Part shown: piece after piece, positions 1 to 59,143 of the stretch
Numbering within the stretch: position 1 is the stretch's first letter
How the letters are laid out: each line of letters opens with the position of its first letter
Assembly: GCA_021818955.1 (NCBI GenBank)
Contig: JAKASR010000015.1
Location: 1 to 64,000 of the forward strand
Reading direction: 5' to 3'
Source: Acidobacteriota bacterium
GTDB taxonomy: Bacteria > Acidobacteriota > Terriglobia > Terriglobales > SCQP01
Length of the DNA: 64,000 nucleotides
Position numbers and translations under genes: made by a program
The notes under the pieces: model-generated
Seen by the model: only the letters and a program-made list of their open reading frames with translations
Told to the model about the DNA's origin: nothing
Databases searched by the model: none

Positions 1-39
1 GTTAGAAGTTATCGCCTGAATGGGCAAAGTATTATGCTC

Positions 40-262
40 AAAGCGTTAACGGCCGCGTCGGACAGCAGTTTTCGTCATCGGCAATTTCGAAGAAATTGCC
101 TCAAGCCATGCCCGCAGGCCGGGTTCACGCGGGGTTCCGGTTAGGTCCCGCGCCTATTAACGACAATAAACTTTCGGCAGCCATGAGTATTCGCCCTGCG
201 TCCGGTTTCGGCCGGACCCTTGCGAAAGCGTCAGCGCCTAAAAGTAAAAGCGGCCGTGCCGC
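40..262 (+). repeat. Dispersed structured repeat, copy 1 (full length)
   Basis: A 223-bp block that recurs at 16249-16471 with the same length and most bases conserved, and in shortened or divergent form at 33840-34028, 43721-43800 and 57868-58024. It holds a perfect hairpin with arms GGCAATTTC and GAAATTGCC around 80-103, a second hairpin GTCCGGT(TTCG)GCCGGAC near 199-218, and a terminal GCGGC/GCCGC hairpin at 250-262. On the minus strand that last hairpin is followed by TTTTACTTTT, like an intrinsic terminator. It contains no credible gene. Confidence 0.85.
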
Positions 263-16248: not shown

Positions 16249-16471
16249 AAAGCGTTAACGGCCGAATCGGACAGCAGTTTTCGTCATTGGCAATTTCGGG
16301 GAAATTGCCTGTAGACATGCTCGCAGGCCGGGTTTGCGCAGGGTTCCCGTTAGGTCCCGCGCCTATAAACGACATTAAACTTTCGGCATCCATGAGTGTT
16401 CGCCAAGCATCCGGCTTCGGCCGGACGTTTGTGAAAGCGTCAGCGCCTAAAAGTAAAAGCGGCCGTGCCGC
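16249..16471 (+). repeat. Dispersed structured repeat, copy 2 (full length)
   Basis: Same 223-bp length and orientation as copy 1. The first hairpin keeps both arms (GGCAATTTC and GAAATTGCC) while its loop changes from GAA to GGG. The second is TCCGGC(TTCG)GCCGGA. It fills the divergent gap between the rhamnosidase and the HAD gene. Confidence 0.85.
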
Positions 16472-33839: not shown

Positions 33840-34028
33840 GCGGCACGTCCGCATTTACTTTTAGGCGCTGACGCTTTCGCCAAGGTCCGGCCGAAGCCGG
33901 ACGCTTTGCGAAAACTCATGGCTGCCGAAAGTTTATTGTGGTTAATAGGCGCGAGACCGATCCGGAACCCCGCGCTTCGGCCTGCGATTTCGGAAGAAAA
34001 CTGCTGCCCGACTCAGCCGTTAACGCAG
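33840..34028 (-). repeat. Dispersed structured repeat, copy 3 (inverted, shortened)
   Basis: Minus-strand copy. It lacks about 34 bp, including the first hairpin, but keeps the second as GTCCGGC(TTCG)GCCGGAC, now with full pairing, and most of the rest. It lies between pgpA and the dehydrogenase gene. Confidence 0.8.
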
Positions 34029-34050
34029 TTCGAAGGCAGACGCGGGAGGG

Positions 34051-43720: not shown

Positions 43721-43800
43721 AAAACGTTCACCGCCGAGTCGGACAGCGTCGTTTTCATTCCAGGCCAATTCGAAGAAATTGCCGGTTGCAGCCGGCGAGC
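43721..43800 (+). repeat. Dispersed structured repeat, copy 4 (5' part only)
   Basis: The first ~80 bp of the repeat, including AACGTTCACCGCCGAGTCGG and GAAGAAATTGCC. It stops just before the end of the minus-strand gene at 43805. Confidence 0.65.
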
Positions 43801-57812: not shown

Positions 57813-57867
57813 GGTGAGATTGGCAGGCGCCAGAAGCGGTACCGGCTGCTGATGTCTCGGGCGACTT

Positions 57868-58024
57868 CGAAGAAATAGCCTCAAGCCGGTCCAGGAATTA
57901 ATTGCCCGCAGCCATGCCCGCCCCGGCCGGGTTGGCGCGGGCTTCCTTTTAGGTTCTTCTGCAATGGGACGGGAGGCTGGATGGAATGAGCGCCCGCGCC
58001 CGCAAGTCAATGCGGCCGTGCCGC
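57868..58024 (+). repeat. Dispersed structured repeat, copy 5 (divergent)
   Basis: Shares TTCGAAGAAATAGCCTCAAG, GCCATGCCCGC and GGCCGGGTTGGCGCGGG-like blocks and the 3' GCGGCCGTGCCGC with copies 1 and 2. The middle hairpin with TTCG is lost. Located between dinG and the deoxyhypusine-synthase gene, which are convergent. Confidence 0.65.
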
Positions 58025-58057: not shown

Positions 58058-59143
58058 TTACTTCAGCCCCACCAACTCGTCCGCTTTCCAGGTATAAACC
58101 AGCCGCTTGCGCCGCGCCGCCAGCTTGCGTTGCAGGGCGTAGCCGGCCAGCAATGGCAGCGAGACCGAGGGCTCGACGAAACACATCGCCGTGGTCGCCT
58201 GCGAGCGGATCTTGCCCCAGCTCACGGCTTCTTTCAGGGTGCTGCCCGAGAGCCCGCCCCAGTGCGGATTATCGGCGGTCAACTGCACCGCATAGCTGTG
58301 CCCGCGCTCTTCGTGAAAGATGTAGGCCATCACCACCGAGTCGTTAATGTAGTTTTTCGGCACGCCGCCGGCGATATAGATGGCCGCCGTTTTTTTCGAC
58401 TTCACCACGATCTGGGTCAGCTCGTAGTTGTCGCGAATCGAGTCGATTGCCAGCCGCGGCCGGCCTTCCTGTTTGGCGCGATAGTAATGGTGCGTCAAGC
58501 CGATGCCGATGGAGGAATCGTTGATTGCCGGCACGAACATGGGCACGCCGCGGCGGTAGGCGGTGCGGACGATGGATTGCTCGTCGTCGAGCTTGGAGCC
58601 GACATATTCCATATAGGCGCGGGATGAATAATTGCCCGGCGGCAGCTCGTCCGCCAACTCACCCAGCCAGGTGTCGGTGGCGATGAATTTTTCTTCGTCC
58701 ACGTAAGTGTCGTAGATGCGGTCGATCAGCAGCGCGTGCAGCTTGGCGTCGTCGGCCGCCGGGTCGCCCTCATAATGGCCCCAGCCGCGCGCCTGGTAAA
58801 TATCCTGATAGAGAATGGCGCCGGTGGAAACGATGACGTCGATATAGCCGCCGGCCACCAGGTCGCGCAGCACCTTGCGCAATCCGGCGGCGATCAGCGG
58901 TCCCGCGAGGCCCAGCATCACCGTTGGCCGGGCGCGGTCGGCGTAGAGGTTGCGCAGCACTTCCGCGCAGAGTCCCAGATTGCGCGCCTGCACCGAAGCG
59001 CCGCGCATCGCCTCGACCAGGTCGGCGACCGAGCTGACGCGATCGAAATCCACCGGCGCGATGCGTTTTTGCAAAAAGCGGCGCTTGGCGCGGGCGTCAA
59101 TCGGCCCCGCGCCGGGAATGGTGATGGCTTGGCTTTTCGACAT
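58058..59143 (-). CDS. Deoxyhypusine-synthase-family protein
   Basis: A 361-residue homologue of eukaryotic and archaeal deoxyhypusine synthase. NAD and spermidine site features are visible: STGAILYQD, GVPMFVPAINDSSIG, YIAGGVPKNYIND, and the catalytic-type lysine 311 in EAVSWGKIRS. Bacteria have no eIF5A, so the substrate must differ; known bacterial relatives make homospermidine or related polyamines. AGAAGG precedes the ATG. It is downstream of an unknown gene by 64 bp on the same strand. Confidence 0.88.
   Translation of the reverse strand: MSKSQAITIPGAGPIDARAKRRFLQKRIAPVDFDRVSSVADLVEAMRGASVQARNLGLCAEVLRNLYADRARPTVMLGLAGPLIAAGLRKVLRDLVAGGYIDVIVSTGAILYQDIYQARGWGHYEGDPAADDAKLHALLIDRIYDTYVDEEKFIATDTWLGELADELPPGNYSSRAYMEYVGSKLDDEQSIVRTAYRRGVPMFVPAINDSSIGIGLTHHYYRAKQEGRPRLAIDSIRDNYELTQIVVKSKKTAAIYIAGGVPKNYINDSVVMAYIFHEERGHSYAVQLTADNPHWGGLSGSTLKEAVSWGKIRSQATTAMCFVEPSVSLPLLAGYALQRKLAARRKRLVYTWKADELVGLK

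What the first reader, a model, noticed from the sequence alone, without database searches (positions are those of the whole stretch)
40..262. Dispersed ~223-bp structured repeat with UUCG hairpin
Two 223-bp copies (40-262, 16249-16471), one shortened inverted copy (33840-34028) and two partial ones (43721-43800, 57868-58024) all lie in intergenic gaps. Stem arms are kept while loops vary (GAA to GGG), and the second stem keeps a TTCG loop with wobble or full pairing, which suggests RNA-level selection. Its 3' hairpin can be an intrinsic terminator in either direction. It might be a mobile non-coding element or a transcript-end module. I do not recognise it as a described family.
Basis: seen in the sequence. 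Interest (0 to 1): 0.68.

Follow-up and report, generated by a model that had tools for sequence, protein, structure and literature searches.

The report
Replication-oriented modular hairpin repeat, Acidobacteriota
A roughly 80-460 bp non-coding, strongly folded mobile repeat has spread to at least 361 places between the genes of a soil acidobacterium, and for long stretches of chromosome nearly all copies point the same way, following the strand asymmetry that DNA replication leaves rather than the direction of genes, which suggests that it jumps as single-stranded DNA at the replication fork.

Summary
The genome (3.8 Mb, Acidobacteriota) holds 361 sites matching a 21-mer of its 3' end (2 mismatches allowed; reversed control 0). 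In 1.68 Mb examined I found 220 merged copies; about 97% of those tested are intergenic. The element is modular: 5' cap, 0-5 GNA-loop hairpins, a GC-rich hairpin, 0-5 further hairpins, then a 3' TTCG-hairpin domain ending AAAAGCGGCCGWGCCGC. Length classes step by about 30 bp. The folded core covaries across genera. It was found in only 4 of 298 genomes of the order, in three genera of one family.

Copies are insertions: the sister genome has empty sites. There is no target duplication. The left flank carries a conserved C four bases before the element; the right flank carries almost nothing. Orientation is uniform over tens of kilobases, independent of gene strand, and tracks codon-third-position A/T skew (p about 1e-36). 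This anatomy resembles single-strand IS200/IS605/REP-type transposition. The resident genome, however, has no Y1 transposase that the Pfam model detects.

The transcript-end idea is not supported. Whether RNA or ssDNA is the folded form, and which replication strand is used, are not settled.

The parts
40..262 (+). Full-length copy, 223-bp class (one B1 hairpin, no B2)
37..40 (+). Left-flank target signature C-N-N-N (here CTCA) directly before AAGCG; the C is 96% conserved over 124 copies
   Evidence: logo; sequence
44..54 (+). 5' strands of long-range helices P1 (CGTTAA, 44-49) and P2 (CGGCC, 50-54)
   Evidence: partners at 157-162 and 117-121
80..100 (+). B1 hairpin cassette GGCAATTTC-GAA-GAAATTGCC (0-5 copies in other elements, about 30-bp unit)
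117..121 (+). 3' strand of P2 (GGCCG)
128..152 (+). D hairpin CGCGGGG..TTAGGTCCCGCG
157..162 (+). 3' strand of P1 (TTAACG); the B2 hairpin array is inserted after this in longer copies
186..262 (+). 3' (E) domain, also found alone as short inserted copies of about 80 nt: outer stem TTCGC/GCGAA (190-194/222-226), inner stem GTCCGGT/GCCGGAC (200-206/211-217) with TTCG loop (207-210), terminal hairpin GCGGC-CGT-GCCGC (250-262)
16249..16471 (+). Full-length copy, 223-bp class, between divergent genes (rhamnosidase, minus; HAD hydrolase, plus)
33840..34029 (-). Full-length copy, 190-bp class (no B1, no B2), inverted
43722..43789 (+). 5'-only copy (cap plus B1 hairpin), diverged
57852..58024 (+). 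Degenerate copy: middle part 57852-57957 and 3' end 57989-58024

Best explanation
This is a non-autonomous mobile DNA element (a structured, modular MITE-like repeat) that most likely moves, or moved, as a folded single strand exposed at the replication fork. An enzyme acting in trans would recognise the terminal hairpins, cut 3' of a C-N-N-N target tetranucleotide, and join the element there without duplicating the target. Shown: copy number, modular anatomy, conserved fold with compensatory changes across genera, insertion at sites empty in a sister genome, no target duplication, a one-sided conserved flank signature shared by full copies, solo 3' domains and another genus's variant, uniform orientation tied to strand composition rather than to genes, and intergenic placement biased to gene 3' ends. 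Inferred: that the strand asymmetry is that of replication, that the transposed form is single-stranded DNA, and that an IS200/IS605/REP-like (HUH-type) activity did it. The hairpin arrays (0-5 units) probably grow and shrink by slippage. Placement near gene ends is probably selection against insertion in genes and promoters.
For: Copy number: 361 3'-end sites against 0 in the control. Structure: on 29 copies from three genomes 94.1% of cells pair, against 32-43% with slid partners; 19 cells changed on both sides against 6.2 +/- 2.0 in shuffles, 0/500. Genus G003 keeps P1 with different letters (GCCAG/CTGGC for CGTTAA/TTAACG) and the 3' end AAAAGCGGCCGTGCCGC. Insertion: empty sites in sister genome G001, with the size difference matching the element (e.g. 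C22:5002, 189 bp vs 186; C12:350364, 189 vs 189; solo 3' domain C12:338601, 82 vs 84). No target duplication. Left flank C at -4: 96% of 124 full 5' ends, 94% of 32 solo 3' domains, 5 of 5 G003 copies; right flank nearly unconserved. Orientation: contigs 0+/45-, 35+/0-, 30+/1-, 20+/0-, 16 of 16 minus on C37; adjacent loci agree 134 of 161. Genes on the element's strand have AT3 skew -0.31 against -0.06 on the other (p about 1e-36). No link to gene strand: 44 same, 54 opposite. IS200/IS605 insertions recapitulate replication direction by using the lagging-strand template (PMC5371812).
Against: No Y1 (PF01797) transposase in the 96%-complete genome, nor in G004. The Y1 genes of G001 and G003 carry no element in the fetched flanks. 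No autonomous copy was identified: some 5'-only and 3'-only pieces lie 0.3-6 kb apart, but I did not examine the cargo between them. The terminal hairpin sits exactly at the 3' edge, unlike canonical IS608 right ends. GC3 skew (weak) and AT3 skew (strong) disagree on which strand is leading. Marker genes favour the element strand being leading: by my count 9 to 2 (16S rRNA, rpoBC, dnaK and six tRNAs against rpmA and one tRNA), which is not decisive.
Confidence: 0.6

Rival explanations
1. A non-autonomous retro-element: a structured RNA is reverse transcribed and inserted with a primer at the fork. 3'-only copies would be 5' truncations.
For: Highly structured one-strand fold, C(UUCG)G-type loop, 3' end invariant across genera, 68 3'-only against 33 5'-only merged copies, no target duplication, replication-linked orientation.
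Against: Most 3'-only copies start at one discrete place (profile 130-150) and keep the same C-NNN-RAG left junction, so they look like a defined unit and not random truncations. Wobble bias expected for RNA was not found. No reverse transcriptase was looked for.
Confidence: 0.15
2. A host-beneficial polar chromosome element (KOPS- or Chi-like in logic) kept in one orientation by selection, not only by insertion bias.
For: Orientation uniform over long regions and independent of genes; hundreds of copies.
Against: Sister genome G001 has few copies and empty sites, so the copies are recent and not required; exceptions to orientation exist; long structured body unlike known short polar motifs.
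Confidence: 0.1
3. A transcript-end or attenuator module: the 3' hairpin terminates or stabilises transcripts.
For: Bottom strand reads hairpin GCGGCACGGCCGC then TTTTACTTTT; copies lie close to gene 3' ends, median 37 bp against 135 bp for 5' ends; slight excess of the 3' end facing gene ends, 71 to 50.
Against: Orientation unrelated to flanking genes (44 same, 54 opposite); both ends face gene 3' ends; orientation is regional.
Confidence: 0.1
4. An ordinary MITE of a DDE transposon.
For: Small, non-coding, high copy, intergenic.
Against: No target duplication in 93 full copies or empty-site comparisons; ends are not inverted repeats of each other; flank signature on one side only.
Confidence: 0.05

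Closest known systems
IS200/IS605 family and their non-autonomous derivatives (HUH-Y1 single-strand transposition)
   Same: Terminal hairpins, no target duplication, conserved sequence only on the left flank, orientation linked to replication
   Different: No Y1 transposase detected in the host genome, terminal hairpin flush with the 3' edge, much longer modular body, target conserved essentially at one C
Structures flanking class 3 TnpA-Y1 genes (Quentin et al. 2018, PMC6006769; about 600 copies in Solibacter usitatus, Acidobacteria)
   Same: Same phylum, high-copy atypical secondary structures, left foot beginning with C (CnGA against CNNN)
REP/BIME elements with RAYT (TnpAREP)
   Same: Intergenic, palindromic, mosaic, near gene 3' ends
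   Different: Not 20-40 bp GTAG or CGTC units; not in inverted pairs; strict regional orientation
Pneumococcal BOX elements (boxA-boxBn-boxC; Croucher et al. 2011, PMC3049150)
   Same: Two fixed end modules with a variable number of hairpin cassettes between; intergenic
   Different: A different phylum and, as far as seen, a different sequence (not compared letter by letter); BOX, RUP and SPRITE follow coding bias at about 61% leading and not near-total regional orientation

Membership tests
IS200/IS605-type single-strand element (PATE-like) | No target duplication | tested here: met
IS200/IS605-type single-strand element (PATE-like) | Conserved target tetranucleotide kept on the left flank only | tested here: inconclusive
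   Left flank K-C-C-W-N with C at 94-96%, other positions weak; right flank almost none
IS200/IS605-type single-strand element (PATE-like) | Subterminal hairpins at both ends | tested here: met
IS200/IS605-type single-strand element (PATE-like) | Orientation follows replication direction | tested here: inconclusive
   Follows strand composition, p about 1e-36; origin and terminus not mapped
IS200/IS605-type single-strand element (PATE-like) | Cognate Y1 transposase in the genome, or an autonomous relative with the same ends | tested here: not met
REP/BIME (RAYT) | 20-40 nt palindrome with GTAG or CGTC foot | tested here: not met
REP/BIME (RAYT) | RAYT gene in the genome | tested here: not met
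Class 3 TnpA-Y1 structures | 5' foot CnGA | tested here: not met
   C conserved, positions 3-4 variable; definition from PMC6006769
Class 3 TnpA-Y1 structures | Sequence homology to the Solibacter structures | not tested
   Sequences not at hand
BOX element | boxA/boxC end sequences | not tested
   Not compared letter by letter; a different phylum, and only the modular layout is similar
DDE MITE | Target duplication | tested here: not met
Rfam families | Match to any of 4227 covariance models | tested here: not met

The most novel reading that the evidence does not exclude
A previously undescribed family of modular, structured mobile elements that spread by a replication-fork-coupled single-strand process whose enzyme is not a recognisable Y1 transposase, with a minimal C-NNN target and hairpin-cassette arrays. 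It would be a new mobilisation system.
Probability: 0.3. Interest if true: 0.85.

Novelty: new variant of a known kind. Interest (0 to 1): 0.62.

Why it matters
It is a high-copy, recently expanded element whose orientation reads out strand asymmetry along the chromosome far more strictly than BOX, RUP or SPRITE, and apparently without a resident transposase of the expected family. If confirmed, it shows single-strand-type transposition of a large folded body, gives a natural map of replication direction in uncultured Acidobacteriota, and poses a clear question about which enzyme moves it. The covarying structure across genera with exchangeable hairpin cassettes gives direct test constructs.

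Tried and rejected
(1) Wobble asymmetry as proof that the top strand folds: apparent (79 G.T against 29 A.C), but gone with curated pairs and an unpaired baseline (47 against 31, Fisher p 0.72). I treat the first result as an artefact of the folding program choosing G-U pairs. (2) Gene-strand explanation of orientation: rejected. (3) Target duplication: none. (4) Y1 transposase: none in the genome, and those in relatives are not flanked by the element. (5) Autonomous copy with long cargo: only loosely paired 5' and 3' pieces were seen, and their cargo was not examined. (6) Rfam, phages, plasmids and viral contigs: no match. (7) Leading or lagging assignment by a dif site: none found in the sampled sequence; parS sites found only at C28:215.7-215.9 kb. 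(8) A second genome-contig scan gave only the sister genome (MAG DBS2-1.bin132).

Full report
OBSERVATION. The whole genome (3.80 Mb, 47 contigs, 96% complete) has 361 sites matching the 3'-end 21-mer GCGCCTAAAAGTAAAAGCGGC with up to 2 mismatches, against none for the reversed control. A profile over 1.68 Mb gave 220 merged copies: 111 with both ends, 68 3'-only, 33 5'-only and 8 internal. Contigs of the sister genome match by length the MAG 'Acidobacteria bacterium DBS2-1.bin132', so the host is an uncultured acidobacterium.

ANATOMY. Full copies fall in length classes about 30 bp apart (190, 220, 250, 280, 310, 340). The sequence reads: 5' cap RAGCGTTAACGGCCGAGTCGGAC..GTC; array B1 of CAATTTC-GNA-GAAATTG hairpins, 0-5; GGCCG; D hairpin GCGCGGGG..TTAGGTCCCGCGC; TTAACG; array B2 of GCAATTCC-GCA-GGAATTGC hairpins, 0-5; E domain with TTCGC[GTCCGGT-TTCG-GCCGGAC]GCGAA; AAAAGTAAAA; terminal hairpin GCGGCCGWGCCGC. 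CGTTAA and CGGCC at the 5' end pair with TTAACG and GGCCG further on and close a branched domain. The E domain also occurs alone as short copies of about 80 nt.

STRUCTURE IS CONSERVED. On 29 copies from three genomes, 94.1% of cells form standard pairs against 32-43% when partners are slid. 19 cells are changed on both sides, against 6.2 +/- 2.0 in shuffles. The 5' hairpin is TCGGAC/GTCCGA in G000 and TCGCAT/ATGCGA in G004. G003 has GCCAG/CTGGC in place of CGTTAA/TTAACG, with the same 3' end. I could not show which strand, or which nucleic acid, is the folded one: the asymmetry failed the curated test.

DISTRIBUTION. A covariance model found the element in 4 of 298 genomes of the order, all in one family and three genera. 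The DNA search added a low-completeness fifth genome, G008.

INSERTION. In the sister genome, collinear flanks were found for many copies, and the element is missing with matching size difference: 189 bp against an excess of 186 (C22:5002), 189 against 189 (C12:350364), 250 against 257 (C12:351891), 82 against 84 for a solo E copy (C12:338601). No duplication is visible. The left junction is K-C-C-W-N followed by RAG, with the C at 96% (n=124). The solo E copies have the same junction (94%, n=32), and five of five G003 copies have C at the corresponding place. The right flank is essentially free. A signature shared by two different 5' ends points to the target rather than to the element.

ORIENTATION. 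Contigs are nearly pure: 0+/45-, 35+/0-, 30+/1-, 20+/0- and 16 of 16 minus on C37. Neighbouring loci agree 134 of 161 times, and agreement stays near 90% out to 30 kb. Gene strands on these contigs are balanced, and between codirectional genes the element is 44 with and 54 against. Genes on the element's strand have AT3 skew -0.31 against -0.06 for genes on the other strand (p about 1e-36), and GC3 skew -0.068 against -0.009 (p about 1e-4). Thus orientation follows a chromosomal strand asymmetry, most simply that of replication. 16S rRNA, rpoBC, dnaK and six tRNAs lie on the element strand; rpmA and one tRNA lie opposite. That favours element top strand = leading-strand sense, i.e. top strand on the lagging-strand template, but the small GC3 difference points the other way, so this step is open. 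In S. pneumoniae BOX, RUP and SPRITE are only about 61% leading, mirroring coding bias (PMC3049150).

CONTEXT. 157 of 162 loci are intergenic. They crowd gene 3' ends (median 37 bp) and avoid 5' ends (median 135 bp), whichever way they point. That fits selection against damage better than a directed transcript function.

MECHANISM. No target duplication, a left-only target signature, hairpins at both ends and strand-linked orientation together describe HUH-Y1 single-strand transposition, whose insertions recapitulate replication direction (PMC5371812). But the genome and G004 lack any PF01797 match, and the Y1 genes of G001 and G003 are not flanked by the element. The enzyme is therefore lost, missed or of another kind. 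The nearest published lead is class 3 TnpA-Y1 in Acidobacteria, with about 600 structured copies in Solibacter and a CnGA foot (PMC6006769); our foot is CNNN, and I could not compare sequences. I therefore say it works like such an element (0.6) and do not file it as a member.

Noticed in passing
L079-L087 (genome G001); one 80% match at G000 C12:26701-26750: The sister genome carries another intergenic repeat of about 300 bp (GATGGGAGTTAGATATGCCGAGGTC..GGTCGGGGTTTCCTGTCAGGTCCCGACC..) with a D-like hairpin and C(GNA)G hairpins, apparently a distant cousin by grammar.
   Followed up: partly
L070, L073, L076, L078 (G001): Short G001 elements keep the 5' cap and, in most cases, a GCGGCCGTGCCGC-type end but carry a different hairpin (ACCCACGCAGTGCGTGGGT) between them.
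   Followed up: partly
window 58058-59143, minus strand: Deoxyhypusine synthase (PF01916) next to the degenerate copy; uncommon in bacteria.
   Followed up: no
L263 (G003 C40): IS200-like Y1 transposase fragment (DHVH..YIDNQ) in the genus that carries the fourth element variant, near a contig end; the element was not found in its fetched flank.
   Followed up: partly
G000 C28:215721-215864 (L197): Two parS-like sites, one of them next to a copy of the element; probably near the replication origin.
   Followed up: no
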